Of a DNA stretch of 58,938 nt, positions 1 to 58,938 are shown piece by piece (the stretch's first letter is position 1; each line of letters starts with the position of its first letter). The notes beneath the pieces were generated by a model. That model had not been told where the DNA came from. It did no database searches and saw only the letters and a list, made by a program, of their open reading frames with translations. The position numbers and the translations under genes are program-made. Source of the stretch: a virus; the IMG/VR virus record IMGVR_UViG_3300038954_000089, positions 1-58,938 of that record. One strand, 5' to 3'.

Positions 1-127
1 CAGGGGGATCGGCGGCAGTGAAATATAGCCTTTCACCCGTTGCTGATATCCAGGCTGGAACGGCGAACTGGATCACTAAAGAGACCGGGAAAACATCCGC
101 CGGTTCAACATCCATATACGGCCCGGT
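1..127. repeat. 127-bp terminal direct repeat, left copy
   Basis: Bases 1-127 are identical to the last 127 bases (58812-58938). Joining the copies restores one open frame that crosses the window ends. This is the usual mark of a circular contig whose ends overlap by one assembly word. It could also be a real terminal redundancy, but the repeat lies in the middle of a structural gene rather than beside the terminase genes. Confidence 0.95.
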
Positions 128-5013: not shown

Positions 5014-7608
5014 ATGGCCGGCATTCAACGCACAATTGAAATTCTTTTCAGCGGGACCGATAACGTCTCCGGGGTCGCTGAATCCATAGGCGATAACCTA
5101 TCCGGGATCGGCGACGGGATACAGGACGCGACGCAGCCATTCGCCGATCTGACGGCGGCTATCGGCGTCGCTGAAGCAGCGTTTGCCGGGCTTGTGGGCG
5201 TGGCCATCGCGGGCAAGGCCGATATCGAAGACCTGGGGAAATCTATCCAGGCAACGCTCGGAATAACGGCGGATGAAGCGGCAGGTTTGGCCGATGAGGT
5301 TAAGGAAATATTCGCCGAAGGGTTTGACCTGGAGATATCGACAGAGGCCGTTACTTTCGCGTTTCAGCAGTTCCGGGATTCAGCGGAGGAGGATGTCGGG
5401 GCGATTGCATCCAGCGCAACAAAAATATCCCAGGCTTTCGGCGGCGATCTAAAGCAGACAATCGACGCGACCAAAACACTCACCGAGCAATTTGGCCTTA
5501 CAGGGAAAGAGGCGCTTGATTTCATAGCTTCCGGCTTTCAGTCTGGGCTTGACCGCTCCGGCGATTTCCTGGAAACGATCAACGAATACTCTACGCAGTT
5601 TAGTAGCGGCGGTGCGTCGGCCGAACAGTTTTTTTCGCTCCTGGATTCAGGGTTGCAAGGCGGGATACTCGGGACAGACCGCGCCGCAGATGCTTTCAAA
5701 GAGTTTCGTGTCCGAATCCAGGACGGATCGAAATCAACGAGAGAAGGTCTCGAAGCCATCGGAATTAACGCTGCCGACATGGCGGCGAAGTTTCAGAATG
5801 GGAGCATAACGGCGGCTGAAGCGTTTCAGATCGTCCTGAAGAATATTAATGAGACTGATGATCAAAGCAAAGCATTCCAGGCCGGTGTGGCTCTCCTTGG
5901 GACGCAGTTCGAGGATCTTGGCGACAAAGCAGCCAAGGGGTTGACGCTCGCCGGGACAGAGATGGAAGACCTGGCCGGATCGGCTGATCAGGTTGCCGAA
6001 AAGTTTGATACAATTGGCCAGGCTGCACAAGCGGCGTTCAATTCCATTCTTGCATCATTCGCCGATACTGATGCGCTGGATGGATTGTCAGACAAATTTG
6101 AAAAAATTTTTCAAAACATCGCGGAGAATTTCCCGAAGGCTCTGGAGGGTGTAGATTTCTCCGGGCTGAATGATGCGCTGGAAGACGTATTAAGCAACGC
6201 TGAAGGACTTATAAGCGACTTTTTCGGCGGGGTCGATCTGTCCACGCCGGAGGGGCTGGAGGCGGCAATACAGGCCATCGTGGACGCGCTCGAAGGATTC
6301 CAGGATATTGTCGGGGGCGTTATAGACGGGTTCGGGCCGTTAGTGGGATTTCTCGGTGATGCGTTAGATTATTTCAACGATTTGTCGCCGGAGGTCAAGG
6401 CCACTGCCGGCTTCATGCTCGCATTGGCGACGCAGGCGAATCTTGCGGCCGGGGCGTTATCCGGTATCGGCGGGGCTATCAGCGGAGCGGGGCAGGCGCT
6501 TGGTGGGCTTTCAACGGCGGGAAAAGCCGGTACCGCTGCTATCGGAAAACTTGCAACGGCTCTTGGACCGGCTGGCCTCGTGGTTGCCGCAGGGGCGGCC
6601 GGAGCGGCCATCGGGACCCTGATAAATCAAATCCCAGGCGTACAAGAGACGGTTCAAGGGGTAATCGCAGAAGTCGATAATTTTCTCGGTGGAGTGTTTT
6701 CGGCAGGGCCTACGCTTGACGAAATGGAGAAGATCGACAACGCTTTTTTCGCCGCAAAGCAACAGTTTCAGGAGACACAAAAAGCAGCCGAAGATACCAG
6801 CGAGGCAATTGCGAATGTTCCAGGTGAAAAAGAGGTCAACATTGCCACAAACACCGAGGAAGCACAGGCGAAGCTAAATCAACTCGGCGGTGACGTTGAC
6901 AGCCTGACAACCGATGAGTTTTTGCTGGCCATCGGAATCGATGACCAAGCAAGCAATGAAGTTAGACAGGCAAAAGAAGAGTTCCTGGCGCTTGATGGGA
7001 CGGTTGTTGAATTCGTCGGTAAGGCCGACACTGAAGATGCGAAAAAGGCGATTGAAGAACTTGTACCGCCAGACAAACGGCTTGAATTACAGGTTGAACT
7101 CGAAACCGCTCAGATCGAGGCCGACGCGGAGAGATTTGCCGCTCAAATGGAGGCGCTTCAATCGTCAGTTGAATGGGAAGCTAAACTTGATATTGCACAA
7201 GTTGAAGCGAATGCGCGGCAGGTAGAGGCCGCTTTCGAGTCAGTCAATACGACGATCCAAAGCACAGGAGACGTAATTTCAGAATCTCTCGGGCTGCTTG
7301 TCGGTCTGGGTGATGGCATCGGAAACGCGCTTGAAAAATTCGCGATTACAGAACAGATAAGAAAAGAAAATGAACTACGTGAACGGGCAATTAAATTACA
7401 GGAGAAATTGACGGAACAACAAATAGTAACAATGCGAGACCTGTCCGACAGGTTAAACTCGGATGATCCGATCAAATTGACGTTGAACACCGACAACCTA
7501 TCTCCAGCCCTTGAATTGGTTTGGGAGGAGATCCTCGAAGCATTGCAGGATCAGGCCGTGCTTGAGGGTGGTGATATGCTAGTTTCCATGTTGGGGTCGT
7601 CTTCATGA
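5014..7608 (+). CDS. Tail tape measure protein
   Basis: This 864-residue protein is the longest tail gene. It has the features of a tape measure: long Ala/Gly-rich helical stretches, a TP901-like N-terminal region (residues 70-330) with motifs such as FGLTGKEALDF and GGASAEQFF, a hydrophobic central part (about residues 465-560), and coiled-coil regions at 580-830. It sets tail length and helps DNA entry. The stop overlaps the next gene start as ATGA (7605-7608). Confidence 0.92.
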   Translation: MAGIQRTIEILFSGTDNVSGVAESIGDNLSGIGDGIQDATQPFADLTAAIGVAEAAFAGLVGVAIAGKADIEDLGKSIQATLGITADEAAGLADEVKEIFAEGFDLEISTEAVTFAFQQFRDSAEEDVGAIASSATKISQAFGGDLKQTIDATKTLTEQFGLTGKEALDFIASGFQSGLDRSGDFLETINEYSTQFSSGGASAEQFFSLLDSGLQGGILGTDRAADAFKEFRVRIQDGSKSTREGLEAIGINAADMAAKFQNGSITAAEAFQIVLKNINETDDQSKAFQAGVALLGTQFEDLGDKAAKGLTLAGTEMEDLAGSADQVAEKFDTIGQAAQAAFNSILASFADTDALDGLSDKFEKIFQNIAENFPKALEGVDFSGLNDALEDVLSNAEGLISDFFGGVDLSTPEGLEAAIQAIVDALEGFQDIVGGVIDGFGPLVGFLGDALDYFNDLSPEVKATAGFMLALATQANLAAGALSGIGGAISGAGQALGGLSTAGKAGTAAIGKLATALGPAGLVVAAGAAGAAIGTLINQIPGVQETVQGVIAEVDNFLGGVFSAGPTLDEMEKIDNAFFAAKQQFQETQKAAEDTSEAIANVPGEKEVNIATNTEEAQAKLNQLGGDVDSLTTDEFLLAIGIDDQASNEVRQAKEEFLALDGTVVEFVGKADTEDAKKAIEELVPPDKRLELQVELETAQIEADAERFAAQMEALQSSVEWEAKLDIAQVEANARQVEAAFESVNTTIQSTGDVISESLGLLVGLGDGIGNALEKFAITEQIRKENELRERAIKLQEKLTEQQIVTMRDLSDRLNSDDPIKLTLNTDNLSPALELVWEEILEALQDQAVLEGGDMLVSMLGSSS

Positions 7609-24192: not shown

Positions 24193-24225
24193 AGGCCGGA
24201 TTTTTTTGATCTGGCCTATTTTTTT
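24193..24225 (+). terminator. Intrinsic terminator of the membrane module
   Basis: A 9-bp stem (AGGCCGGAT with ATCTGGCCT, one G-T pair), a loop of seven (mostly T), then ATTTTTTT. Two bases later a promoter begins. Confidence 0.88.
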
Positions 24226-24286
24226 CCTTGACAGGGTGCCCTTAGAGGGTATATATTGTTTTCCAGGATAGGGAAAAACAGCAACC
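24213..24286 (+). repeat. Promoter block, copy 1 (also at 26316-26390)
   Basis: A 74-base segment from GGCCTATTTTT to AACAGCAACC is nearly identical to 26316-26390, with differences only in the T tract, after the -10 and near the end. It contains the -35, -10 and the CCAGGATAGGGAAAAA leader. Confidence 0.85.
24228..24257 (+). promoter_or_regulatory. Promoter for the 24302 operon
   Basis: -35 TTGACA (24228-24233), an 18-base spacer and -10 TATATT (24252-24257). The spacer GGGTGCCCTTAGAGGGTA is shared with the promoter at 26331 and could hold an operator (CCCTTAGAGGG is an inverted repeat). Confidence 0.75.
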
Positions 24287-25650: not shown

Positions 25651-26004
25651 ATGTTCAGAAACTTCACACCCCATGTAGTAAAGATCATTGACAGCAACGG
25701 CAATGTCGCCATGGAGATCCCGCCAGAAGGCGTACAGGTACGAGTGAAAGAGCAGGTTGAATACGAAGGTATTATTCAATTCAAGCACGAAGGTTTTTTC
25801 CGTGGCGTACCTGTAGTCCGCAAGAAATATGCCGAAATCGAGGGGTTGCCGCAACAAGAAGATGGCGTCACGTTAATTGTCAGCGTGATTGTTTTAAACG
25901 CCTCAGACCGGTCCGATCTGGTATGCCCCGATACAGGCCCGGATTCGGTCGTGCGGGATGAAGACGGTAATATTCTCGGAGTTCGCCGCTTCCAGAAAAA
26001 ATAA
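25651..26004 (+). CDS. Conserved phage protein of the FxNxTPH type
   Basis: A 117-residue product with the pattern of a common phage and prophage protein of unknown role: FRNFTPHVVKI at the start, EIPPEGVQVRV, an EGLPQQEDGVTLIVS stretch, then RSDLVCPDTGPDSVVRDEDG and VRRF at the end. AAAGGAG precedes it. I recall the family but no tested function. Confidence 0.7.
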   Translation: MFRNFTPHVVKIIDSNGNVAMEIPPEGVQVRVKEQVEYEGIIQFKHEGFFRGVPVVRKKYAEIEGLPQQEDGVTLIVSVIVLNASDRSDLVCPDTGPDSVVRDEDGNILGVRRFQKK

Positions 26005-26080
26005 AGCCGAAACGCCCTTCGGGGCGTCCGTCGGGGCGGTTCCCGGCGCTGACGAGGCAACCAAAAATGGAGTTTTCATA

Positions 26081-26302: not shown

Positions 26303-26315
26303 TTTTTTTTACTCC

Positions 26316-26390
26316 GGCCTATTTTTTTTCTTGACAGGGTGCCCTTAGAGGGTATATATATTTAACCAGGATAGGGAAAAAACATCAACC
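26316..26390 (+). repeat. Promoter block, copy 2 (also at 24213-24286)
   Basis: Nearly identical to 24213-24286, including the 18-base spacer and the CCAGGATAGGGAAAAA leader. In front of it a 5-bp stem (GGAGT/ACTCC) and T tracts may act as a weak terminator for the HTH gene. Confidence 0.85.
26331..26360 (+). promoter_or_regulatory. Promoter for the 26405 operon
   Basis: -35 TTGACA (26331-26336), an 18-base spacer and -10 TATATA (26355-26360). The spacer is identical to that of the promoter at 24228. Confidence 0.75.
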
Positions 26391-27088: not shown

Positions 27089-27436
27089 ATGGATTACAGG
27101 AAAGAAAAAGCCGAGAAACTTCGGCAACGTGCCGCAATGATCGCAGAGGCGGCCGGGGGGTTGGACGACTTCTCACAGTATGAGGCTGAGATGGCGGAAG
27201 CCGCAGGGCTCCGGGCTGAAGCAAATCGCCTCGATCCTCCGCCCCTAAAACAACTAAAAACTCCACAGATACAGCTTTGTGTCCTATGCAACAAAATCGC
27301 TGCCAACAAAGGATGGAAGGTCATCGAACGGCAAATGGCCCTCTGCCCAGATTGCGAGGATGCGACACCAGAGGATCTCAGGCTTACCGGCCGCCGGTTG
27401 TTCCACGCCGCCAAGGTTCTGGAGCGGCAGGCATGA
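27089..27436 (+). CDS. Helical protein with a zinc-ribbon end
   Basis: A 115-residue product. Residues 1-50 are a helical, Ala/Glu-rich stretch. Residues 65-92 hold a zinc ribbon (CVLCNK and CPDCED). The stop overlaps the next ATG as ATGA. No family is recognised. Confidence 0.6.
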   Translation: MDYRKEKAEKLRQRAAMIAEAAGGLDDFSQYEAEMAEAAGLRAEANRLDPPPLKQLKTPQIQLCVLCNKIAANKGWKVIERQMALCPDCEDATPEDLRLTGRRLFHAAKVLERQA

Positions 27437-27819
27437 GACTATGGCACTATAAGCTAATCCCCCACCTTGACCGTCAGCGCCTACTCGGCCAGCACCGAGA
27501 ATGCTGTGCCTTGAGGGGCCACGGGTGGGGGAAAAAACACGCGACGGTAGACTACGTTTTCGAGCACCACTATGCCATGCTGTTCAACTATCATTGCCTC
27601 ATAATGGCAGAAATGACGAGGCGAGGATATAGCGTCACAGACGATTGGTGGATTCCACCATATCGCGGCAAGAAGATAGGCCATGACCACTCACCTTTCA
27701 CCAAAATCCCGAACAATCAATGCATCTACCCGGATCATGACGAAAAGTATCTTAATGAATGCACTGAGAATTTGAGGGACAAGGGGGTGAACATCTGCCG
27801 AAAAACGATTGTCGGTTAA
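27433..27819 (+). CDS. Pyrimidine-dimer DNA glycosylase-like protein (T4 DenV-like)
   Basis: The 128-residue product matches what I know of the Pyr_excise family: MRLWHYKLIPHLDRQRLLGQHRECCALRG... The sequence continues with HATVDYVFEHHYAMLFNYH and a RRGYSVTDDW segment. The members resemble T4 endonuclease V, which cuts at UV dimers. The start lies in an ATGA overlap. Its presence suggests the phage repairs UV damage. Confidence 0.75.
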   Translation: MRLWHYKLIPHLDRQRLLGQHRECCALRGHGWGKKHATVDYVFEHHYAMLFNYHCLIMAEMTRRGYSVTDDWWIPPYRGKKIGHDHSPFTKIPNNQCIYPDHDEKYLNECTENLRDKGVNICRKTIVG

Positions 27820-27837: not shown

Positions 27838-28092
27838 GTGAATGTGAGTGAGTGTACCGGTTGTGGGCAATGCTGTTTGTCAGAGCAATGTGAGGCTTCA
27901 AAAATAGCCGTTGGATCGTCTGACAATATCTGCCCTTTTTTAAAACTATCATCACCTGGTTTTTATAGATGTCTCTTGGTTGAGCTTGAAGAATCGACAG
28001 ATTTAGACCCATTAATTAAAAATGCTTTAGCGATTGGTTTTGGATGCACAAATGATTTTAAGTCACCTAACCAGGGTAGTACAGCGGACTAA
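27838..28092 (+). CDS. CxxCxxCC (YkgJ-like) metal-binding protein in a cassette
   Basis: An 84-residue product with CTGCGQCC at residues 6-13 followed by three more Cys, as in YkgJ-type zinc/iron-chelating domains. The GTG start has GGATAGGTG upstream. The stop TAA lies inside an attC-like site (28065-28116), as expected for an integron cassette gene. Confidence 0.6.
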   Translation: MNVSECTGCGQCCLSEQCEASKIAVGSSDNICPFLKLSSPGFYRCLLVELEESTDLDPLIKNALAIGFGCTNDFKSPNQGSTAD

Positions 28093-28116
28093 GGCCGCTC
28101 ACCTCAAACGTTATAG
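28065..28116 (+). mobile_element. attC-like site 1
   Basis: The left core ACCTAAC fits RYYYAAC exactly and the right core is GTTATAG (28110-28116). AGCGG/CCGCT arms with an unpaired A sit between them. The right part GCCGCTCACCTCAAACGTTAT follows the same pattern as the sites at 28569 and 33394. Confidence 0.55.
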
Positions 28117-28192
28117 AATAAAGATGTATGCCTAAACATCGACTAAGCGAAGAAGATTTTTATCCCACAACCATCTGCATTAGGAGAAAAAA

Positions 28193-28606
28193 ATGAAGGC
28201 ACTCTCGATACAACAACCGTGGGCGTGGGCAATCTTGCACGCGGGAAAGGATGTTGAAAACCGGACGTGGACACACAATTATCGTGGGCAAATTTTGGTT
28301 CATGCCGGCAAAAAGTTTGACAAAGCTGGATATGCTTGGCTGATCGATCAATCTCTTAGAAACGGCCCCATAAAGCTAACTATCGATGATATTCCAGCGA
28401 AAGAAGATTTTTATCGTGGCGGACTGGTCGGCCGTGTAGTAATCAAAAAAATGGTAAGGTCGATCGGATACTCTCCGTGGATGTTCGGTCCGTGGGGATG
28501 GGTCCTGGAGGACCCAGAGCCTATCGATTTTTTACCATACACGGGGCGCCTCGGATTGTTCGATGTCAATATAACCCGTCATACGAAAGGATGCGCCCGG
28601 CAATAG
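28193..28606 (+). CDS. ASCH domain protein in a cassette
   Basis: The 137-residue product starts MKALSIQQPWAWAILHAGKDVENR, the typical ASCH pattern, with YRGQILVHAGKKFD and GGLVGRVVI following. ASCH domains are thought to bind RNA or modified bases. AGGAGAAAA precedes the ATG. The stop lies inside the attC-like site at 28569-28640. It would be the only gene of a 524-bp cassette between two attC-like right cores (28110 and 28634). Confidence 0.75.
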   Translation: MKALSIQQPWAWAILHAGKDVENRTWTHNYRGQILVHAGKKFDKAGYAWLIDQSLRNGPIKLTIDDIPAKEDFYRGGLVGRVVIKKMVRSIGYSPWMFGPWGWVLEDPEPIDFLPYTGRLGLFDVNITRHTKGCARQ

Positions 28607-28640
28607 GAGGCCGGCCGCACCGCTCAATTCTACGTTATAC
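28569..28640 (+). mobile_element. attC-like site 2
   Basis: The left side AATATAACCCGTCA is identical to the 14 bases at the left of the 33394 site. The right core is GTTATAC (28634-28640) after CACCGCTCAATTCTAC. Arms GG-A-TGCG/CGCACC and CCGGC/GCCGG can pair, with an extra A on the left arm as in known attC sites. Confidence 0.6.
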
Positions 28641-30667: not shown

Positions 30668-30700
30668 GCCCTGGCTCATGACCAGCCGGGGCAGAAAGGA
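30668..30700 (+). promoter_or_regulatory. Hairpin leader with ribosome site, copy 1
   Basis: A 9-bp stem (GCCCTGGCT with AGCCGGGGC, one G-T pair) with loop CATGACC is followed by AGAAAGGA. The same arrangement occurs at 31392-31423, with related sequence. Confidence 0.6.
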
Positions 30701-31391: not shown

Positions 31392-31423
31392 GCCCCGGCT
31401 CACGACCGGCCGGGGCAGGAAGG
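31392..31423 (+). promoter_or_regulatory. Hairpin leader with ribosome site, copy 2
   Basis: A perfect 8-bp stem (GCCCCGGC with GCCGGGGC), loop TCACGACCG, then AGGAAGG. It shares CCGGCTCA-GACC-GCCGGGGCAG with the leader at 30668. No T tract follows, so it is not a terminator. Confidence 0.6.
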
Positions 31424-32717: not shown

Positions 32718-32760
32718 CGTTGGAGTTTCTGTATGTTAACCTGTTATAATGCGAGGTAAA

Positions 32761-33123: not shown

Positions 33124-33170
33124 TCAAATATGGACATGCGCGGGGTGGTCGTTAATTAAGGAAAATCACC

Positions 33171-33341
33171 ATGAAACGAAAAGACGTTTTAAGGTTGGCC
33201 GATTCACAGGACACAATTATGCGTGTATTGGCCAGGTCGTGGCTGGATGCGGATACAGGTGATTGGCCCCGCCAAAATGCGGGACAATGGAAGAGCCTGG
33301 TCGAGAAGGCCATTTCGCAACGGATCGAGGAGGGGGGATAG
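33171..33341 (+). CDS. Small helical protein
   Basis: A 56-residue product with helices (RKDVLRLADSQDTIMRVLARSWL, EKAISQRIEE). AAGGAAAAT lies upstream. It would belong to the cassette closed by the attC-like site at 33394, though the left border of that cassette is not clear. Confidence 0.5.
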   Translation: MKRKDVLRLADSQDTIMRVLARSWLDADTGDWPRQNAGQWKSLVEKAISQRIEEGG

Positions 33342-33393: not shown

Positions 33394-33457
33394 ATATAAC
33401 CCGTCAGTTGAGGCGGACGCGGAAAAAGCCCCGCGCCGCTCACTTTAAGAGTTATGC
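33394..33457 (+). mobile_element. attC-like site 3 (best match)
   Basis: Cores ATATAAC (33394-33400) and GTTATGC (33451-33457). Between them TGAGGCGGACGCGG pairs with CCGCGCCGCTCA when one G and one A of the left arm are left unpaired, exactly the extrahelical-base layout of integron attC sites. The loop is AAAAAGCC. Confidence 0.75.
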
Positions 33458-33477
33458 AACACAAAAAAGGAGCCGAC

Positions 33478-33681
33478 ATGATTATTGAAATATATACACC
33501 GATGAACACGAAGCATGTGGTGGAAGCGGACAAGGAAGATAAACACCGTATCCTTGATTTGATTTTCTCAGCCGAATACGGCGACATAGATATCAAAACC
33601 CCTTCCGGCAGGCTTATTATTCCTCATGAGGTAAAACGACGATGCATTTTTATGGTCAAAGATCAGCATTCAACGGCATAA
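33478..33681 (+). CDS. Small cassette gene of unknown function
   Basis: A 67-residue product (IIEIYTPMNTKHVVEADKED, then FSAEYGDIDIKTPSGRLIIP). AAAAAGGAG precedes the ATG at 33478. It is enclosed by two attC-like right cores (33451 and 33734), giving a 283-bp one-gene unit. Its stop TAA is part of the left core of the next site, typical for cassettes. Confidence 0.6.
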   Translation: MIIEIYTPMNTKHVVEADKEDKHRILDLIFSAEYGDIDIKTPSGRLIIPHEVKRRCIFMVKDQHSTA

Positions 33682-33740
33682 CCCAATACCGAACCGGACC
33701 GGCGAAACAGCCAGCCGGCCGGTTACATTAGTCGTTAATC
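33676..33740 (+). mobile_element. attC-like site 4
   Basis: Cores GCATAAC (33676-33682) and GTTAATC (33734-33740). The arms AACCGG-A-CCGGC and GCCGGCCGGTT form an 11-bp stem with one unpaired A on the left arm. Confidence 0.7.
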
Positions 33741-34668: not shown

Positions 34669-34771
34669 TTTATGCGCGGGGTGGGCGTTAATTGTCGCGG
34701 CGTTTATCGACGTTTCCCCTTGACACGGGGGCGGGGTCAGCGGATCAAGAGATTGAGGCACAGGAGATGAT

Positions 34772-36025: not shown

Positions 36026-36345
36026 ACAAAGAAACCGATGTTTTTAACAGTCTTCTAAAAAGGTCATTTTATGAGTATATCCCGGTAAGATGTTCACATT
36101 GCGGGTTTGATTATACTCATCAATTTGAAACCCATGTGTTTGAGAGGCCAGAAGACGCCAAACATGGGAATCATGTAACGGTTAACAATAACGATGTTAA
36201 GATTGACAGGGATATTTCAAAGAATCCGAGTGGAAGGCGGCACGGAGTATCCATTCTTTTGTCATGCGAAGGTTGCGACGGAATAACTCGTCTCGATATT
36301 ATTCAACACAAAGGGAACACGCTTATAGAGGTCCATAAAACATGA
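36022..36345 (+). CDS. Small zinc-site protein between initiator and primase
   Basis: A 107-residue product with CSHCG and CEGCDG pairs. GGAGGTATG precedes the ATG at 36022, which overlaps the previous stop. The end overlaps the primase-helicase start by ATGA. It could be a replication accessory protein. Confidence 0.6.
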   Translation: MNKETDVFNSLLKRSFYEYIPVRCSHCGFDYTHQFETHVFERPEDAKHGNHVTVNNNDVKIDRDISKNPSGRRHGVSILLSCEGCDGITRLDIIQHKGNTLIEVHKT

Positions 36346-38060
36346 AAACCCTTTCCGACTACGGGATCGAACTCGGAGCGTCGGCAACCGGCACAGAAAC
36401 CAGGACAACCTGCCCGCAATGCTCTGAACAGCGGAAAAAAAGCCGTGACAAATGCCTTGCGGTTAATACGGAGAAAAAGACTTGGTTCTGCTTTCATTGC
36501 GGGTGGGCTGGCGGAATAGGGCGTGAAGAGTCGGCGTCGGAATATGTGGCCAGGACGCCGATGCCAGCTAACAATTACCGTAAGCCGCAACCGCCGAAGG
36601 CAGACCCCGACGGATTGCCGGAGAAAGTCGTTAGGTGGTTCGCGGATCGCGGTATATCCAAAGCGACATTGGAGGCCGCTAAAGTCGGTTACGGCCCGAT
36701 CTGGATGCCGCAGGAAAATGGCGAAGTGAACGCGATAAATTTTCCGTATTACGGCGGCGGGGAACTGATCAACGTCAAATATCGGGACGGTAAAAAGAAT
36801 TTCCGAATGGAGAAGGGGGCACGTCGGGCGCTTTACGGTCTGGATGATATCAACGAATTCCAAACAATCTGGACGGAGGGCGAAATAGACAAGCTGTCCT
36901 TTGCGGAGGCTGGCTTTTCAAACTGCGTATCGGTCCCGGATGGAGCGCCGACGCCAAACACGAACAACTATTCATCGAAATTCGATTTTTTGGACGATGC
37001 CGAAAACCTTATTGAGCCGGTCCTATCCCATGTCATAGCTGTCGATGGGGACGCCCCAGGTGCAAGGCTGAAAGCCGAGCTTATCCGCCGTCTCGGCCCC
37101 GGTAAATGCCGCGTGATCGAATGGCCGAACGGTTGTAAAGACGCCAACGAGGTTTTGGCCGCCCATGGGCCGGAGGCGCTAAAGAATCTTATTGACAAAG
37201 CCCGTCCTGCACCGGTCGCCGGCGTGTTCGATGTCGATGATATCGAGCGGGAGGTTTTGGATTTTTATGATTATGGATTTGAAAGGGGGGAATCGACAGG
37301 GTGGAAAGCGGTTGATGAATTTTACACGGTCAGGGTACGGGAATGGTCCGTCGTTACTGGAATTCCTTCACATGGGAAATCGGAATGGCTGGACGCGGTA
37401 ATGGTTAACATGGCGCAAACTGCCGGGTGGAGGTTCGGTATTTGTTCTATGGAAAATTTTCCGCTGTCAAGGCACTTTGCCAAACTGATTGAAAAATATG
37501 TCGGTTTGCCGTTCCAGAGCCATCACCGAACATCGAGGATGAGCCGGGATAATTTAAAATCCGCCATCGAATGGGCGCGGGAGCATTTCTTTTTTATCCA
37601 TCCTGAAGACGACGAAATGACGGTTGATGGCGTTTTGAGCTTGGCTCAAGTCCTTGTTTATCGCCATGGGATACAGGGCTTGATTATCGATCCGTGGAAT
37701 GAACTAGATCACACATGGCCCCGTGAACAAAACGAGGTCATGTATATTTCTTCATCCCTTTCAAAAATCCGCAGATTTGCCCGTAAGGCCGGGGTCCATG
37801 TCTGGATCGTTGCGCATCCGACGAAATTACCAAAGCGGGCCGATGGGCAATACCCTCCGCCGACACCGTATGACATCAGCGGAGCGGCTCACTGGCGAAA
37901 CAAGGCCGATAACGCTATTACGATCTATCGGCCAAACATGGCGGATTGGGAGGATCCGACAGTTGAAATTCATGTCCAAAAAGTCCGCTTTAAAGAAATC
38001 GGAAAAGTAGGTCTTGCAACATTGCAATATGATTACGCAAACGGGAGGTATTCAGAATGA
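36342..38060 (+). CDS. Primase-helicase (T7 gp4/Twinkle-like)
   Basis: The 572-residue product has a zinc finger (C24, C27, C50, C53), a TOPRIM-like primase core (IWTEGEIDKLSFAEAG, then HVIAVDGDAPG) at about 170-275, and a RecA-like helicase from about 320 with Walker A GIPSHGKSEW (near 340) and LIIDPWNELDH. It would unwind the fork and prime synthesis. The overlap with neighbours shows a tight operon. No separate DNA polymerase was found, so the host enzyme is probably used. Confidence 0.88.
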   Translation: MKTLSDYGIELGASATGTETRTTCPQCSEQRKKSRDKCLAVNTEKKTWFCFHCGWAGGIGREESASEYVARTPMPANNYRKPQPPKADPDGLPEKVVRWFADRGISKATLEAAKVGYGPIWMPQENGEVNAINFPYYGGGELINVKYRDGKKNFRMEKGARRALYGLDDINEFQTIWTEGEIDKLSFAEAGFSNCVSVPDGAPTPNTNNYSSKFDFLDDAENLIEPVLSHVIAVDGDAPGARLKAELIRRLGPGKCRVIEWPNGCKDANEVLAAHGPEALKNLIDKARPAPVAGVFDVDDIEREVLDFYDYGFERGESTGWKAVDEFYTVRVREWSVVTGIPSHGKSEWLDAVMVNMAQTAGWRFGICSMENFPLSRHFAKLIEKYVGLPFQSHHRTSRMSRDNLKSAIEWAREHFFFIHPEDDEMTVDGVLSLAQVLVYRHGIQGLIIDPWNELDHTWPREQNEVMYISSSLSKIRRFARKAGVHVWIVAHPTKLPKRADGQYPPPTPYDISGAAHWRNKADNAITIYRPNMADWEDPTVEIHVQKVRFKEIGKVGLATLQYDYANGRYSE

Positions 38061-47117: not shown

Positions 47118-47184
47118 GGATGGAATAGGGTAGCTCCCGAAAAGCAAGTGTCCTGGCTTGTCTGTCCATCCATTAACCCAGGAC
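47118..47184 (+). promoter_or_regulatory. Pseudoknotted leader RNA (riboswitch-like)
   Basis: GGATGGA (47118-47124) pairs with TCCATCC (47165-47171). Inside, GCAAG/CTTGT (47144-47148 with 47157-47161) closes a loop whose GTCCTGG (47150-47156) pairs perfectly with CCAGGAC (47178-47184). AGGAGG of the next gene begins 11 bases later. Stem-in-stem plus loop pairing beside a ribosome site is the layout of translational riboswitches or autoregulatory elements. It matches no class known to me. Confidence 0.55.
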
Positions 47185-47206
47185 AAACAACTACAGGAGG
47201 TTGAAA

Positions 47207-47938
47207 ATGGGTATAATTTACACACCGAGAGGCAGGGCGCAGGAATATTCACCTTTGGCGGCTAATTTGTTTTCAGGATGCGTCCATGGATGCAAGTATT
47301 GTTATGCTCCGGCTTGTTTGAGGCGAAAGCCGGAAGATTTCCACGGAAAAACTATTGTCAGGAAAGATGTTCTCGATATTATTGAAAAGGACTTGAAGAA
47401 AATTCAACCCAGCCTTTTTGATGACGATTTACCGCCAGTTTTGCTTTGTTTTACGACTGATCCGTATCAGCCGAACGAAAGTAAAGAAATCACACGACAG
47501 GCTTTAGAGCTTTTCAGGTGGTACGATTACCCATTCCAGGTATTGACCAAGGGCGGCATGAGGGCGGCGCTGGATTTTGATTTATTCTCAGGAAAAGACG
47601 CTTTTGCGTCAACCCTTACCTTTTTAGATGAATCTTTGTCAAAAGAGTGGGAACCTTTCGCCGCGAGTCCATCCGACAGGATTGAGGCCATAAAACTTGC
47701 GAAACAAAAAGGCATCCATACATGGGTATCGTTTGAGCCGGTTCTTGATGCTGATCAAGTTTTTCAGCTTTATGAAGCCACAAAGGATTTTGTCGATCTT
47801 TATAAGGTCGGGAAATGCTCTGGCACATATTCCAATGTAATAGATTGGGCCGCATTCGCCGGAGAAATTATTCGTCGAATGGAAGATGATGGCAAAAACT
47901 ATTACATCAAAAATGATCTTAGGAAGCACATAGAATAA
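47207..47938 (+). CDS. Radical SAM protein (spore photoproduct lyase-like)
   Basis: The 243-residue product has the iron-sulfur motif C25-x3-C29-x2-C32 (CVHGCKYC), followed by LCFTTDPYQPNE, FQVLTKGG and TWVSFEPVLD, as in SplB-like/Rv2578c-type radical SAM proteins found in phages. AGGAGG lies 7 bases before the ATG. It could repair DNA lesions, in line with the dimer glycosylase at 27433, but other reactions are possible. It is coupled to the terminase genes. Confidence 0.78.
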   Translation: MGIIYTPRGRAQEYSPLAANLFSGCVHGCKYCYAPACLRRKPEDFHGKTIVRKDVLDIIEKDLKKIQPSLFDDDLPPVLLCFTTDPYQPNESKEITRQALELFRWYDYPFQVLTKGGMRAALDFDLFSGKDAFASTLTFLDESLSKEWEPFAASPSDRIEAIKLAKQKGIHTWVSFEPVLDADQVFQLYEATKDFVDLYKVGKCSGTYSNVIDWAAFAGEIIRRMEDDGKNYYIKNDLRKHIE

Positions 47939-48312
47939 TGCCTGCTGGAAGGCCGAAAAAACAAATCAACCTCGACGAAGCGGCGAAGCTGTGTAGCCTG
48001 CAATGTACCCTTTCCGAAATCGCCGGCTTTTTTGGTATCGATGAAGACACCGTACAGGCCAGGATAAGAGATGCTGGATATGACAATTTTTCGGCCTTCT
48101 ATAAAAAGCATTCCCACGGCGGGAAAATAAGTCTCAGGAGAAATCAGTTTAAGCTATCTGAGAAGAGCGCGGCCATGGCCATTTGGCTCGGCAAGCAATA
48201 TCTATGGCAATCTGATTATCCGAATCAAGAATTTGATGAAGAGATGGATGATGGTTTTTTTGACGCCTTGAACGACACCGCGCAGGAAGTGTTCGACGAT
48301 GGCGACGAATAA
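47938..48312 (+). CDS. Terminase small subunit
   Basis: The 124-residue product starts with PAGRPKKQINLDEAAKLCSLQCTLSEIAGFFGI, an HTH typical of small terminase subunits. An acidic end (QEFDEEMDDGFFDALND) would bind the large subunit. It sits right before TerL and overlaps it by 14 bases. Confidence 0.85.
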   Translation: MPAGRPKKQINLDEAAKLCSLQCTLSEIAGFFGIDEDTVQARIRDAGYDNFSAFYKKHSHGGKISLRRNQFKLSEKSAAMAIWLGKQYLWQSDYPNQEFDEEMDDGFFDALNDTAQEVFDDGDE

Positions 48313-50632
48313 GCGAGATCAAGCCCGTCCATTCAAGTGGGGGACGTTATCCCGGAAAGCCAAGCAGGCGCTTACCTGGTGGGTTGATTCGTCGCCGCAT
48401 CGGCACAAGGATATTTTTATCGCCGATGGTGCGGTCCGGTCGTCGAAATCCTTGTGTGTTTCATCTGCTTTTGTCGATTGGGCGATGGAGCGGTTTTCCG
48501 GGGAGTTGTTCGGTATGGCAGGTAAGACCATCGGATCATTTCGTCAAAATGTTCTGCGGGATTTAAAGCGCGTTATGGTTGGGCGGGGGTACACGTTCAA
48601 GGACCGGCGATCCGAGAACGTTTTGGAAGTATCCAAAGGCCGCCGTGTCAATGAATTTGAAATATTCGGCGGGAAAGATGAAGCAAGCCAGGATTTGATC
48701 CAGGGGCGGACGCTGGCCGGTTTTCTCGGTGACGAGGCAGCTCTTTATCCGCAGTCGTTTCTGAAGCAGGCGATGGCGCGATGCTCGGTTGACGGATCGA
48801 AAATATGGTTGACGTGCAATCCTGGACCGCCGCAGCACCCAATCAAAAAAGAGTTGATCGACCGTGCCAAAGAGTTGAATCTGCTTCATATCCACTTTAC
48901 CCTCGATGACAACCTCACCTTAACGGAATCCATCAAGAATCGGTACAAAGCACTGTATTCCGGTCTTTTTTTTAAGCGGTTCATTCTTGGCCTATGGGTC
49001 ATGGCCGACGGAATCATTTATGATATGTTCGATCCAGACCGGCATATAGTTGATGATGTGGATTTGACGGGATGGAATCAGCTTATATCCGGTGTCGATT
49101 ATGGCATCGGAAACCCGACAACATGGGATGAAACATGGACGGACGGTGAACGGTTCCACGTTGCGCGGGAATATTATCATTCATCCGGTGTGACCGGACG
49201 GCAGATGACGGATGATGAATATGCGGATGAATTCGATGCTTTCTGGGGAGAAAGACGGCCGGACAAGGTTTACATCGACCCGTCGGCCGCGTCGCTGAAA
49301 TTGGCATTGCAGAACCGTGGATATTCGATATTTTCAGCGGACAATGACGTGCTGGAGGGGATCAAGTATGTATCGACGCTTTTGCATACCGGAAAATTGA
49401 CGTTTTCACCGAGTTGCCACAACCTGATTGAGGAAATGGGTTCATATATTTGGGACGCCAATGCCCAAAAGCGCGGAGAAGATAAGCCGTTGAAGGCGAT
49501 GGACCATTGTTTTGCGGCTGGAACTATGGTCGAAACAATCAATGGAGAGGTGCCGATAGAAGAGATAGTGGAGGGCGACTTGGTTTTAACGTCGCAAGGG
49601 TTCAAGAACGTTTTGTCTTCTGGCATAACGTCAAAAAATGCAGAGGTATTCGATTTCTTGATGCCTAACGATACAGTTTTAATTGCAACAAAAGGACACC
49701 CGGTGTATACTGAATGCAATGGATTTGTTGAAATATCAAACCTTAAAAAGGGGGATGTTTTAAAATGCCTTTGCAAGCAGAAACACAGGAGTTTAACGGA
49801 ATCGTGTATAGACGTTATCCAGAATCAGAAACAATGTCAGATCGGCGGTATTTTAGGTGTAATTCAAACCATTTTGAAAAGGGCTTACGATATTTGCATC
49901 GAGACATTTGGAAGTTTCATTACGGAGAAATACCGAATGGACACCATATCCACCACATCGATGGGGACTTTTCAAATAACTCCATCGAAAACTTACGGCT
50001 TGTCCATGCCTCTGAGCACTTATCAGAACACGGAAAGAAAGGGTGGGAAAATAGGATCGAAGAAGGGCTTAAACGTCTCGAAGAAATCAGGCCGCTTGCC
50101 GCTAAGTGGCATAGCAGCGAAGAAGGTAAAAAATGGCATTCTGAACATGCCAAAAAAGTTTTTGGCAATCTTCCGTATAGACGGTCGTCGTGTGAGGTTT
50201 GCGGGAAAGAATACGAAACAAAGAGACCGGATTTGTCAAGATTTTGCTCCAATAACTGCAAATCAAAATTCAGGAGAATGTCAGGCATTGACGACATTGC
50301 AAGGCAATGTAAAAGATGTGGGAAAGAGTTTGTTATTAACAAATACAGCAAGACGATCTTTTGTTCAGGCCGTTGTGCAAAAAAATATCATTGGGGAAAA
50401 TAAGCGAACGGCAACGGTTTACAATTTGACTGTTGATAATTGCCCGGAGTTTTTTGCCAATGGGGTATTGGTTCATAATTGTCAGGATCGCACTCGCTAC
50501 GCCCTATTTTCGCATTCTGGCAAATGGGCAAGAACTCCTCTTTCATACGCCGGAGCGGATCAAGGCCAAACAGCGACCACTCGGAAAGATGGCAAGCAAC
50601 GACCTACCCGCAGAATGCGAGGATTGAGATAA
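48299..50632 (+). CDS. Terminase large subunit precursor containing an intein
   Basis: A 777-residue precursor. The N-extein (1-403) has Walker A GAVRSSKS (44-51), Walker B-like FLGDEAALY (about 145), then nuclease motifs SGVDYG (about 265) and KVYIDPSAAS. The intein covers residues 404-727. The C-extein (728-777) starts CQDRTRYALF, completing the nuclease motif AMDH-CQD. Splicing would leave a 453-residue enzyme, normal for phage terminases. A separate HNH gene lies inside the intein in another frame. Confidence 0.92.
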   Translation: MATNKRDQARPFKWGTLSRKAKQALTWWVDSSPHRHKDIFIADGAVRSSKSLCVSSAFVDWAMERFSGELFGMAGKTIGSFRQNVLRDLKRVMVGRGYTFKDRRSENVLEVSKGRRVNEFEIFGGKDEASQDLIQGRTLAGFLGDEAALYPQSFLKQAMARCSVDGSKIWLTCNPGPPQHPIKKELIDRAKELNLLHIHFTLDDNLTLTESIKNRYKALYSGLFFKRFILGLWVMADGIIYDMFDPDRHIVDDVDLTGWNQLISGVDYGIGNPTTWDETWTDGERFHVAREYYHSSGVTGRQMTDDEYADEFDAFWGERRPDKVYIDPSAASLKLALQNRGYSIFSADNDVLEGIKYVSTLLHTGKLTFSPSCHNLIEEMGSYIWDANAQKRGEDKPLKAMDHCFAAGTMVETINGEVPIEEIVEGDLVLTSQGFKNVLSSGITSKNAEVFDFLMPNDTVLIATKGHPVYTECNGFVEISNLKKGDVLKCLCKQKHRSLTESCIDVIQNQKQCQIGGILGVIQTILKRAYDICIETFGSFITEKYRMDTISTTSMGTFQITPSKTYGLSMPLSTYQNTERKGGKIGSKKGLNVSKKSGRLPLSGIAAKKVKNGILNMPKKFLAIFRIDGRRVRFAGKNTKQRDRICQDFAPITANQNSGECQALTTLQGNVKDVGKSLLLTNTARRSFVQAVVQKNIIGENKRTATVYNLTVDNCPEFFANGVLVHNCQDRTRYALFSHSGKWARTPLSYAGADQGQTATTRKDGKQRPTRRMRGLR
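49508..50479 (+). mobile_element. Intein in the terminase nuclease motif
   Basis: A 324-codon intein with block A CFAAGTMVET (Cys1), block B with TKGHPVYT, and block F ending VYNLTVDNCPEFFANGVLVHN before Cys+1. His-Asn at the end and Cys on both sides indicate standard class 1 splicing. The middle (about residues 90-300 of the intein) has no endonuclease in this frame; it is the shadow of the HNH gene at 49765-50403. Confidence 0.92.
49765..50403 (+). CDS. HNH homing endonuclease nested in the intein in another frame
   Basis: The 212-residue product has a classical HNH domain (YLHRDIWKFHYGEIPNG, HHIHHIDGDFSNNSIENLRLVHASEH) and two C-terminal treble-clef zinc sites (CEVCGKEY...FCSNNCK and CKRCGKEF...FCSGRCA). 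Its frame differs from the terminase-intein frame, and both stay open for 639 bases. AAGGGGGAT lies about 10 bases before the ATG, so it can be translated on its own. It would cut intein-free terminase genes and spread the intein. Confidence 0.9.
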   Translation: MPLQAETQEFNGIVYRRYPESETMSDRRYFRCNSNHFEKGLRYLHRDIWKFHYGEIPNGHHIHHIDGDFSNNSIENLRLVHASEHLSEHGKKGWENRIEEGLKRLEEIRPLAAKWHSSEEGKKWHSEHAKKVFGNLPYRRSSCEVCGKEYETKRPDLSRFCSNNCKSKFRRMSGIDDIARQCKRCGKEFVINKYSKTIFCSGRCAKKYHWGK

Positions 50633-53559: not shown

Positions 53560-55827
53560 ATGGATATTTTTAAACCATTCAGGGCCAAACAAGACGCGGG
53601 CGAACAGCCGGTTGAGGTGCAAGCCCATGTTGTTCGGTCGATCCAGGGCCAAAATGGGCGCGTTTGGGAGGCGGTTTTGATCGCTCCCGGCGAATCAAAG
53701 TCGAAACCCAAATTCGATTGGACGCCGCAAGTTCTCCAGATGGCCGTGGATGACGGCGTTTTTGAGGGCGTGGCGATCAATGCCTACCAGGTCGCGGATG
53801 GCTACTATAGCCACGTTGACGCGAAACTGGAAGACCTGAAGCAGTATCTCATTCAGGAAAAGGCTGGCGTCGTCAAAGATGTTCGATACGTCGAAAATGA
53901 GGGCGTTGTCGGATATATCGAATTTTCGGAGCGATACGAATGGATACCGGCGCAGCTTTCGGACAAGCCGGATTTTCTCGGTCTATCCATCGATGCCCGA
54001 GTGACAGCAAGCGAGAATACGGAACCGATTCCGGTGACCAAAATCCTGGAGGCCAGTTCCGTTGACGTAGTGACCCGTCCGGCAGCGGGCGGAAAATTCA
54101 TCCGCGCCGTTGCGGATCAGACAACCCCAAACGAAAAACAGGAGCAAGACATGGACAAGCGCAAAGTTTTTCGGATGCTCCAGGGCGTCCGGCCCGACCT
54201 AACGGACGGGAAACAAATTAACAGCATGAGCGATGACGAGGTGATGCAACTCGTACAGCAGGCTCTTGCCATTCCAGAACCTGGGAGCGCCGAACCGGAA
54301 ACACCGGCGCAGCAGAACGAACCCGCCGGGGACAAAGAACCGGAAAAGGCCAAGGAGCCGAAAAAAGAACCCGAAACCGAGCAACCAGCACAGCAGGGTA
54401 TGACGATGGACGACATCAAGAAGGAATTAGAGAAATTCAAGCGGGAGCAGGAATGGGAAAAATCCCTCCGTTCTGCTATGAGCGAGAGCAACCTCCCTGA
54501 CCATATCCTTAAACGGCTGCGGGAGAAGTGGGAGCCCAAAGTCGGCGAATTGGACGGGCTGAAAGCCGACATCAAGGCGGAAGTCGAATGGCTGGCGAAA
54601 CAGGCCGTCCCCGGCTTCGACATCCCGGATCAGTCCCGTGTCAATGTGGGCGTAGGTCCGATGCAGAAAATCCAGATCGGGCTTGACAAGGCTTTTGGGC
54701 TTTCGCAGGAGGATTTTGACGGGGCGCGGAAAGCCACCCTCCTGAATGGGAAAAAGGCATTCCCGGACCTCCGGGCCGCGCAGGCCGAAGACTGGGACAA
54801 CACGCCGTCGTCCCTGTCCCTTCGGGAGCTATACGTTCAGCTTTCAGGAGATCCCGACATCACCGGCCATTTCCGTCCGGAGAATGTGTCCCGCGACATC
54901 CGGGCCGCACAGGATTTTACATCATCGACGTTCAGTTATGCGCTCGGTAACACGCTCCACCGGCGGCTGGTCAAGGATTTCCGGGAGCCGGATTTCAAGG
55001 AAGACCTGTTGGTTTCCATCCGCAAAACCGTAACCGATTTCAAATCCCAGGAAGCGGTCAACGTCGGGTATTTTCCTGACATCGCCACAGTCAACCCGGA
55101 AGCCGAGGACTACGACGAGATCGCCACCGTAACCGATGAGGAAAGTATCTACACAATCACTCAGAAGGGTAACCTCATGAGCGTGACTCGGAAGATGATC
55201 TTCAATGATGATATTTCCCTTCTCCAGCGGCTTGTCGGACGACTCGGTCGGGCAGCGCGGCGGACACATGCTAAGGCCGTTTGGGCTTTCTTCACCGGTA
55301 ACGCGACCTGCTCCGATGGGACGCCTTGGTTCACCTCCGGGCATGGGAACCTGAGCAATTCCGCGCTTTCCTTCACCACTGCGATTGCTGCTTACAAGGC
55401 GCTGGCGAAGATGACGGAGAAGGACTCCGGCGAACGGATCGGTCTTCTGGACGGCATGGAGATGCCGACGCTCGTTTATCCGATTGACCTGATGGAAACA
55501 GGCATGAAGGTTGTCGAAGATGAGATCTACTATGCTACAAATGACCTGACTGACAAGACCCGGAACCCGCTGCGCGGGAAGATCCGTGGCGCAATGGTTT
55601 CGCTCCTGACCGATGCGAATGACTGGGGCTTGCTTATGCCGCCTTCGGTGGTCGATATGGTGGAGATGGGCTATCTGAACGGTCGGCAGGAGCCGGAATT
55701 CTTTTTAGCCAATAATCCGACGGTCGGGCAGATGTTTTTAAATGACAAAACGCAGTACAAATTGCGCCATGAATACAATGGCGCGGTAATTGCGTATCAG
55801 TCCGGTTACAAGGGCATAGTGGCCTAA
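53560..55827 (+). CDS. Fused prohead protease, scaffold and major capsid protein
   Basis: In this 755-residue protein residues 1-195 look like a prohead protease (AINAYQVADGYYSH, VGYIEFSERYEW, LGLSIDARV, ASSVDVVTRPAAGG). Residues 198-360 form a charged, Pro/Glu-rich and coiled-coil scaffold part. Residues 370-755 form a HK97-like capsid protein (LHRRLVKDFREPDF, LVGRLGRAARRTHA, TLVYPIDLMETGMKVV). An internal ATG at 54151 has GGAGC upstream, so a scaffold-capsid form could also be made alone. Such fusions need self-cleavage during maturation. Confidence 0.85.
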   Translation: MDIFKPFRAKQDAGEQPVEVQAHVVRSIQGQNGRVWEAVLIAPGESKSKPKFDWTPQVLQMAVDDGVFEGVAINAYQVADGYYSHVDAKLEDLKQYLIQEKAGVVKDVRYVENEGVVGYIEFSERYEWIPAQLSDKPDFLGLSIDARVTASENTEPIPVTKILEASSVDVVTRPAAGGKFIRAVADQTTPNEKQEQDMDKRKVFRMLQGVRPDLTDGKQINSMSDDEVMQLVQQALAIPEPGSAEPETPAQQNEPAGDKEPEKAKEPKKEPETEQPAQQGMTMDDIKKELEKFKREQEWEKSLRSAMSESNLPDHILKRLREKWEPKVGELDGLKADIKAEVEWLAKQAVPGFDIPDQSRVNVGVGPMQKIQIGLDKAFGLSQEDFDGARKATLLNGKKAFPDLRAAQAEDWDNTPSSLSLRELYVQLSGDPDITGHFRPENVSRDIRAAQDFTSSTFSYALGNTLHRRLVKDFREPDFKEDLLVSIRKTVTDFKSQEAVNVGYFPDIATVNPEAEDYDEIATVTDEESIYTITQKGNLMSVTRKMIFNDDISLLQRLVGRLGRAARRTHAKAVWAFFTGNATCSDGTPWFTSGHGNLSNSALSFTTAIAAYKALAKMTEKDSGERIGLLDGMEMPTLVYPIDLMETGMKVVEDEIYYATNDLTDKTRNPLRGKIRGAMVSLLTDANDWGLLMPPSVVDMVEMGYLNGRQEPEFFLANNPTVGQMFLNDKTQYKLRHEYNGAVIAYQSGYKGIVA

Positions 55828-58681: not shown

Positions 58682-58938
58682 ATGGCGAAAGTGGATTTAA
58701 CCGAAACAATCGACGCATACGGGAAAACGTATAACGGAAGCGTCGGGGCTGGCGATTATGCCATTGTGGAGACTCGCCGAAAGGATGTTTCCGTCGCTTG
58801 GCATCCATCATCAGGGGGATCGGCGGCAGTGAAATATAGCCTTTCACCCGTTGCTGATATCCAGGCTGGAACGGCGAACTGGATCACTAAAGAGACCGGG
58901 AAAACATCCGCCGGTTCAACATCCATATACGGCCCGGT
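58682..58938 (+). CDS. 5' part of a small virion-associated protein (ends at 185)
   Basis: The ATG at 58682 follows AAAAGGAAAATGAA. The frame is open to the window end and continues, after the 127-bp overlap is collapsed, to TGA 183-185. See the entry at 1-185. Confidence 0.8.
   Translation, partial: MAKVDLTETIDAYGKTYNGSVGAGDYAIVETRRKDVSVAWHPSSGGSAAVKYSLSPVADIQAGTANWITKETGKTSAGSTSIYGP
58812..58938. repeat. 127-bp terminal direct repeat, right copy
   Basis: Identical to 1-127; see the left copy. Confidence 0.95.

What the first reader, a model, noticed from the sequence alone, without database searches (positions are those of the whole stretch)
28065..28640. Integron attC-like sites bounding an ASCH gene
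Sites at 28065-28116 and 28569-28640 have GTTAT right cores, (R)YYYAAC/ATAAC left cores, CCGCTCA boxes and pairing arms with unpaired A. The CDS stop codons fall inside the sites, as in integron cassettes. Together they define a one-gene cassette (28110-28633). Integron cassettes inside a phage genome would be unusual and would show a capture route for small genes.
Basis: partly seen in the sequence, partly recalled or inferred. Interest (0 to 1): 0.8.

Follow-up and report, generated by a model that had tools for sequence, protein, structure and literature searches.

The report
Integron gene cassettes inside a phage
This complete bacteriophage genome carries integron recombination sites (attC), including a pair that frames an ASCH gene as a movable gene cassette, although the phage has no integrase of its own; phages carrying such sites are already known, so this is a clear new example of a rare, known kind.

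Summary
A covariance model built from 41 attC sites, none from the window, finds three full-length attCs, all on the + strand: 33394-33457 (35.6 bits), 28569-28640 (27.8) and 28065-28116 (16.7). A weaker fourth lies at 33676-33740. Full-length hits in about 480 kb of control phage and plasmid DNA reach at most 13.4 bits. The sites form two pairs, framing an ASCH gene (cassette 28111-28634) and a 66-75 aa orphan (33452-33734). Each framed cassette shows the end signature of a real cassette: its first bases match the inverted R'' box of its own attC, 6/7 for ASCH and 7/7 for the orphan. The window is a complete phage genome (127-bp terminal repeat) with no tyrosine recombinase, so any movement would need a host integron integrase. 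A second phage contig, binned with a Thiothrix MAG, carries at least five attCs and a truncated ASCH gene ending in one. Phage-borne attC clusters without an integrase (CALINs), some recombined by IntI1 in vivo, were published in 2023 (PMC9892861). New member of a known kind. What may be new: one phage gene family fused to attC in two distant phages.

The parts
28065..28116 (+). attC site 1 (R'' ACCTAAC 28065-28071, R' GTTATAG 28110-28116); holds the stop codon of gene A
   Evidence: R1 16.7 bits, E 0.061, full length 1-70/70; sequence
28569..28640 (+). attC site 2 (R'' ATATAAC 28569-28575, R' GTTATAC 28634-28640); holds the stop codon of the ASCH gene
   Evidence: R1 27.8 bits, E 1.3e-4, full length; sequence
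28111..28634 (+). ASCH gene cassette (524 bp) between the G|TT points of sites 1 and 2
   Evidence: cassette start GTTATAG against inverted R'' of its own attC GTTATAT, 6 of 7
28193..28606 (+). ASCH-domain gene, 137 aa; the last codons lie inside site 2
   Evidence: phrog_3193 E 1.5e-43; Pfam ASCH E 0.0023, 19 bits, under the cut-off of 21.2; homologues mostly end near residue 125
27838..28092 (+). gene A, 84 aa, GTG start, cysteine-rich; the homologue continues beyond the point where site 1 begins here; left border of its cassette, if any, not found
   Evidence: 62% over residues 5-73 of a 106-aa protein in viral contig L175; best start signature only 5 of 7
33394..33457 (+). attC site 3, best of the window (R'' ATATAAC, R' GTTATGC); first 13 bases identical to site 2
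   Evidence: R1 35.6 bits, E 1.7e-6; canonical bottom-strand fold, z -2.4; identity of 13 bases
33452..33734 (+). second cassette (283 bp) between the G|TT points of sites 3 and 4
   Evidence: cassette start GTTATGC is the exact inverse of R'' GCATAAC of its own attC, 7 of 7
33481..33681 (+). orphan gene of the second cassette, 66 aa (75 aa if read from 33454); stop codon inside R'' of site 4
   Evidence: ORF; no relative in viral contigs, no family
33676..33740 (+). probable attC site 4 (R'' GCATAAC, R' GTTAATC); only the stem reaches the model
   Evidence: R1 9.2 bits, stem only: E 4.1 in the window, E 0.01 in the 151 bases searched; stem z -2.5 and -2.9; 7 of 7 cassette-end match
33171..33341 (+). 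56-aa ORF upstream of site 3; possible cassette gene, left border uncertain; its stop lies 53 nt before the site
   Evidence: ORF; best start signature 6 of 7 at 32743 and 5 of 7 at 33151
1..127 (.). terminal direct repeat, identical to 58812-58938: complete genome

Best explanation
The sites are genuine integron attC sites, and the DNA between the members of each pair is a genuine gene cassette. The phage itself has no integrase: it carries two small clusters of attCs (a CALIN) on either side of a block of genes that includes its single-strand-binding protein. Shown here: sequence, structure, common orientation, stop-codon position and cassette-end signature of attCs; a complete genome; no tyrosine recombinase. 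Inferred: in an integron-bearing host the host's IntI folds and recombines the bottom strand of these attCs, so that cassettes enter the phage (at attC or at loose G|TT 'attG' sites) and can leave it for the host's integron. Small accessory genes such as ASCH would thereby pass between phages and integrons, and would be read from phage promoters while in the phage.
For: Three full-length hits of an independent attC model on one strand, 35.6, 27.8 and 16.7 bits, next best 9.9 (default filters). Full-length hits in controls at most 13.4 bits, partial ones at most 14.6. Three of the four ORFs before the sites end inside the site. Cassette-end signature 7 of 7 and 6 of 7, as in integrase-linked arrays. 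Box variants shared with integrase-linked arrays. Canonical bottom-strand fold of site 3. No Phage_integrase match in a complete genome. Other phage contigs carry attCs: G002:C24, L174, G010 with a complete integron. Published phage attCs recombine with IntI1 (PMC9892861).
Against: Site 1 alone is borderline (E 0.06) and its R' box is unusual; site 2 has mismatches in the outer arm; site 4 reaches the model only by its stem. No empty site, no donor array and no relative with the same insertion was found. ASCH was found in 1 of 369 gammaproteobacterial genomes, and that copy is on a phage contig, so no bacterial integron is shown as the source. R1 is home-made, and it missed 6 of 10 integrase-linked loci outside its training set. 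Nothing was tested at the bench.
Confidence: 0.75

Rival explanations
1. Real attCs, but fossils: a piece of a host integron array entered the phage by homologous or illegitimate recombination, and the sites no longer move.
For: Sites 1 and 4 deviate from consensus; the two clusters are 4.75 kb apart; no integrase. PMC9892861 also considers illegitimate recombination for phage CALINs.
Against: Sites 2 and 3 keep boxes, unpaired bases and pairing; the cassette ends still match, which decay would erase.
Confidence: 0.14
2. Cassette birth in the phage: phage-resident genes (gene A, ASCH) were joined to attCs within phage genomes rather than captured ready-made.
For: ASCH of this kind is common in phages (142 of 50,697 records) and was absent from 368 of 369 gammaproteobacterial genomes and from the integrase-linked loci held; in two distantly related phages the ASCH-attC joint differs; gene A resembles a phage gene that continues past the point where site 1 begins.
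Against: A stop codon inside the attC is usual for cassettes of any origin (recalled). The genomes searched are a sample. No intermediate is seen, and the homology of gene A rests on one relative.
Confidence: 0.08
3. Chance hairpins or phage terminators that happen to resemble attCs.
For: Site 1 alone is only E 0.06; sites 1 and 2 fold modestly; CGTTAT is not enriched.
Against: Three top-ranked full-length hits on one strand; two pairs with one cassette ORF between each; stops inside sites; matching cassette ends; no comparable full-length hit in about 480 kb of control DNA.
Confidence: 0.03

Closest known systems
Phage-borne CALINs (Qi et al. 2023, PMC9892861), e.g. Tetrasphaera phage TJE1, Pseudoalteromonas phage PH101, Polaribacter phage P12002L
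   Same: At least two attCs with small ORFs between them, in a phage genome without integron integrase.
   Different: Here two clusters 4.75 kb apart, other cassette genes (ASCH and an orphan, not methyltransferases), an uncultivated phage; recombination not tested.
Cassettes of sedentary chromosomal integrons
   Same: R'' and R' boxes, unpaired bases, orientation, stop codon in attC, matching cassette ends.
   Different: No intI, no attI, only about two cassettes, in a phage.
Complete integron in phage contig G010 (IMGVR_UViG_3300001199_000021)
   Same: attCs on a contig with terminase, portal and tail sheath genes.
   Different: G010 has its own integron integrase (E 5.1e-142); the window has none.
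Cassette insertion at attG sites in bacterial genomes (Loot et al. 2024; known to me from its citation and a passage in PMC12901181)
   Same: Would explain cassettes away from an integron platform, inserted at G|TT.
   Different: No insertion event could be reconstructed here.

Membership tests
attC site | R'' (YAAC end) and R' (GTT start) boxes as inverted pair | tested here: met
   Four sites: ACCTAAC/GTTATAG, ATATAAC/GTTATAC, ATATAAC/GTTATGC, GCATAAC/GTTAATC; the last three R' bases depart from GTTRRRY at one or two positions, as in some integrase-linked attCs
attC site | inner stem with unpaired bases, found by a covariance model | tested here: met
   Sites 3 and 2 clearly (35.6 and 27.8 bits), site 1 weakly (16.7), site 4 by its stem only (9.2)
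attC site | recombined by an integron integrase, bottom strand preferred | not testable with these tools
   needs the attC x attI assay
Integron gene cassette | one gene plus one attC in the same orientation, stop codon in or near the attC | tested here: met
   ASCH 28193-28606 with site 2; orphan 33481-33681 with site 4
Integron gene cassette | cassette start complementary to R'' of its own attC | tested here: met
   7 of 7 and 6 of 7; real arrays mostly 7 of 7
CALIN | at least two attCs near each other without integron integrase | tested here: met
   Sites 1 and 2 are 0.5 kb apart; no Phage_integrase match in the complete genome. TIGR02249 itself was not run on the window.
Complete integron | intI gene with attI | tested here: not met
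   no tyrosine recombinase (PF00589) in the record
Mobile cassette in a living phage population | occupied and empty forms of the same locus | tested here: inconclusive
   no close relative in phages or viral contigs

The most novel reading that the evidence does not exclude
Phage genomes are places where integron cassettes are born: an ordinary phage gene family (ASCH) has been fused to attC at least twice, independently and in distantly related phages (full length here; truncated in phage contig G002:C24), and gene A has lost its 3' end to attC site 1. Phages would then supply integrons with new cassettes, not merely carry old ones.
Probability: 0.15. Interest if true: 0.8.

Novelty: new member of a known kind. 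Interest (0 to 1): 0.45.

Why it matters
It adds a complete, uncultivated phage genome to the short list of phages with integron components (21 phages in PMC9892861). It also points to further cases: a phage contig in a Thiothrix MAG with at least five attCs, an IMG/VR contig with terminase, portal, tail sheath and an integron with its integrase, and two more IMG/VR contigs with phage genes and attCs. If the ASCH-attC unions arose in phages, they bear on the open question of where integron cassettes come from.

Tried and rejected
Bacterial donor arrays: ASCH was sought in GTDB contigs (7 loci), 369 gammaproteobacterial genomes, plasmids (112 records) and the integrase-linked loci held. The only copy seen next to attCs outside the window lies on a phage contig. 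Of the 112 plasmid records only 4 were looked at, and of the 142 phage records only 2; R1 gave nothing above 10.8 bits in these six.

Empty-site comparison: megablast and blastn against 50,697 phage records gave no match. Terminase relatives are at most 51% identical. The 14 contigs sharing the 29595-30629 gene match the window in at most two other ORFs of the 30 compared, the SSB and primase/helicase genes.

Cassette borders of gene A and of the ORF before site 3: the best start signatures were 5 of 7 and 6 of 7 at several places, so no border is claimed. I considered that an insertion might have cut the pyrimidine-dimer-glycosylase gene 27433-27819; no comparison could support it, and I dropped it.

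Plain pattern counts: CGTTAT alone is not clearly enriched (37 found, 28.4 expected). The attC-like pattern with 16 fixed bases gave 8 loci in viral contigs, no more than I would guess by chance; only L018 and L021 proved to be attCs.

Full report
WHAT THE WINDOW IS. The window is a whole IMG/VR virus record of 58,938 bases. Its first and last 127 bases are identical, so I take it as a complete genome. PHROG matches show a tailed phage: tape measure 5014-7608, primase/helicase 36342-38060, terminase 48299-50632, head protein and protease 53560-55827. It has no Phage_integrase match. No relative by DNA was found in the phage collection, searched with parts of the window.

CHECKING THE SITES. 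I read the two sites directly. Both have R'' (ACCTAAC; ATATAAC), R' (GTTATAG; GTTATAC), a CCGCTCA box and a stem with one unpaired A. TAA 28090-28092 and TAG 28604-28606 lie inside them. CGTTAT alone is not clearly more frequent than expected, so a model was needed.

INDEPENDENT MODEL. I looked for integron integrases (TIGR02249) in 274 genomes of the class of G002 (107 with a match at E up to 1e-60) and 199 genomes of the phylum of G004 (34 with a match), and fetched the array side of 20 of them. A script scoring R and L box pairing recovered attCs there, in class 1 integron plasmids and in two IMG/VR contigs. From 70 such sites I took 41, none from the window, aligned them and built model R1 with 19 base pairs. 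On the window with filters off, R1 gives 33394-33457 at 35.6 bits (E 1.7e-6), 28569-28640 at 27.8 (1.3e-4) and 28065-28116 at 16.7 (0.061); the next hit is 9.9. With default filters these three are the only hits at E up to 5.

CONTROLS. 45 terminase loci, 216,304 bases: one hit at E up to 5, 13.4 bits. 17 other phage loci, 234,861 bases: one hit at E up to 2, 14.6 bits and partial. Seven of those 17 with filters off, 97,083 bases: best 11.9. Six ASCH loci from plasmids and phages, 32,000 bases: best 10.8, partial. In one search (38 sources, 371,381 bases) 17 hits at E up to 1 fell in 6 sources: four integrase-linked loci, one class 1 integron plasmid and L071. The other 32 had none, among them 6 of the 10 integrase-linked loci outside training, so R1 misses sites and absence means little. 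The 14 phage ASCH loci had none.

A THIRD AND A FOURTH SITE. Site 3 (33394-33457) is the best in the window. It starts with the same 13 bases as site 2, and its bottom strand folds into a textbook attC (z -2.4). Site 4 (33676-33740) has a strong stem with an unpaired A (z -2.5 and -2.9), but R1 sees only the stem: 9.2 bits, E 0.01 for the 151 bases searched and chance level for the window. I call it probable for two reasons: the stop of the ORF before it lies in its R'' box, and the next test.

CASSETTE-END TEST. In a real cassette the first bases (G|TTNNNN) came from the same circle as the attC at its end, so they match the inverted R'' box of that attC. In six integron loci (five integrase-linked ones and IMG/VR contig L021) most cassettes match 7 of 7 (all seven in L151; L159 is worse, 4 to 7). 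Here the orphan cassette starts GTTATGC, the exact inverse of GCATAAC in site 4, although the R' box beside site 4 is GTTAATC. The ASCH cassette starts GTTATAG against GTTATAT, 6 of 7. In the window 8 of 873 GTT heptamers are GTTATGC and 36 of 873 reach 6 of 7 for the other. In joined circular form, site 4's script score rises from 14.0 to 18.5, while site 2's falls slightly, from 14.4 to 13.9.

WHAT THE CASSETTES CARRY. The ASCH protein matches phrog_3193 (E 1.5e-43); the Pfam ASCH match is under its cut-off. Relatives occur in 142 of 50,697 phage records, all under 60% identity, in 14 viral contigs and 112 plasmid records, and most of those aligned end near residue 125. The window's protein runs into attC site 2 there. 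Gene A matches one viral contig, L175 (62% over residues 5-73 of a 106-aa protein); in the window it runs into attC site 1 instead of continuing. The orphan cassette protein has no relative in viral contigs and no family. Gene A's stretch (38.8% G+C) and the orphan's (41.1%) are poorer in G+C than the genome (48.9%), the ASCH gene (48.9%) is not.

A SECOND PHAGE WITH AN ASCH-attC UNION. The best local identity to the window's ASCH among GTDB contigs (67%, over 52 residues) lies on a 59,571-base contig of a Thiothrix MAG. That contig is a phage: portal, terminase, primase/helicase. It shares its primase/helicase and one more gene distantly with the window. R1 finds five attCs, on one strand and at both contig ends. 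Its ASCH gene is cut to 68 aa and ends at an attC unlike those of the window. So the two unions differ. They may be separate events, or old relatives that drifted apart.

OTHER PHAGE CONTIGS WITH attC. IMG/VR contig G010 has an integron integrase (E 5.1e-142), attCs and terminase, portal and tail sheath genes; G009 has tail genes and attCs; L174's contig has terminase and virion genes and four R1 hits. L173 (4.6 kb) has one attC, and its nature is unknown.

HOW IT MOST LIKELY WORKS. The phage has no integrase, so the sites can only be moved by an IntI from elsewhere, most simply that of an integron-bearing host. IntI recombines the folded bottom strand of attC (established knowledge, and shown for phage attCs in PMC9892861). 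The host is not known here, and no insertion or excision was observed.

COMPARISON WITH WHAT IS KNOWN. I read parts 1-4 of 7 of PMC9892861. It screened 10,705 phage genomes and found 3 complete integrons, 1 integrase without cassettes and 17 CALINs; five of six attCs tested from virulent phages recombined with attI1 in E. coli. The window fits that description. Of PMC9024848, PMC12901181, PMC11023631, PMC8352920, PMC8618304 and PMC12444791 I saw only passages. A full-text search for 'ASCH domain' with 'integron' gave 0 papers, in a library that lacks most subscription journals.

VERDICT. Mobilisation by a host integrase is inferred. The kind is known; the ASCH-attC unions in two phages are the most interesting residue.

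Noticed in passing
window 26005-26066 +: Hammerhead_II ribozyme match (RF02276, 53.3 bits, E 3.5e-8) directly after the ORF 25651-26004 and before a helix-turn-helix gene.
   Followed up: no
window 47118-47183 +: int-alpA RNA motif (RF02996, 37.8 bits) just before a radical-SAM/DUF5131-like gene (47201-47938).
   Followed up: no
window 24201-24278 and 26304-26381: 78-nt direct repeat, 90% identical, with a TTGACA promoter-like core.
   Followed up: no
window 30668-30699 and 31392-31423: Two 88%-identical intergenic GC-rich hairpin sequences (GCCC(C)GGC...GCCGGGGC) before consecutive genes.
   Followed up: no
window 33137-33160 and 34671-34694: Near-identical ATGCGCGGGGTGG(T/G)CGTTAATT before small ORFs; one copy ends in a GTTAAT like the R' box of site 4. 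Role unknown.
   Followed up: partly
L170-L172 (Thiothrix MAG contig NZ_JAQTLS010000024.1): A 59.6-kb phage contig binned in a bacterial MAG, with attCs at both contig ends, as if the array spans the join of a circular genome.
   Followed up: partly
L193, L194 (IMGVR_UViG_3300001199_000021): A viral contig with terminase, portal, tail sheath and tape measure genes together with an integron integrase and attCs.
   Followed up: partly
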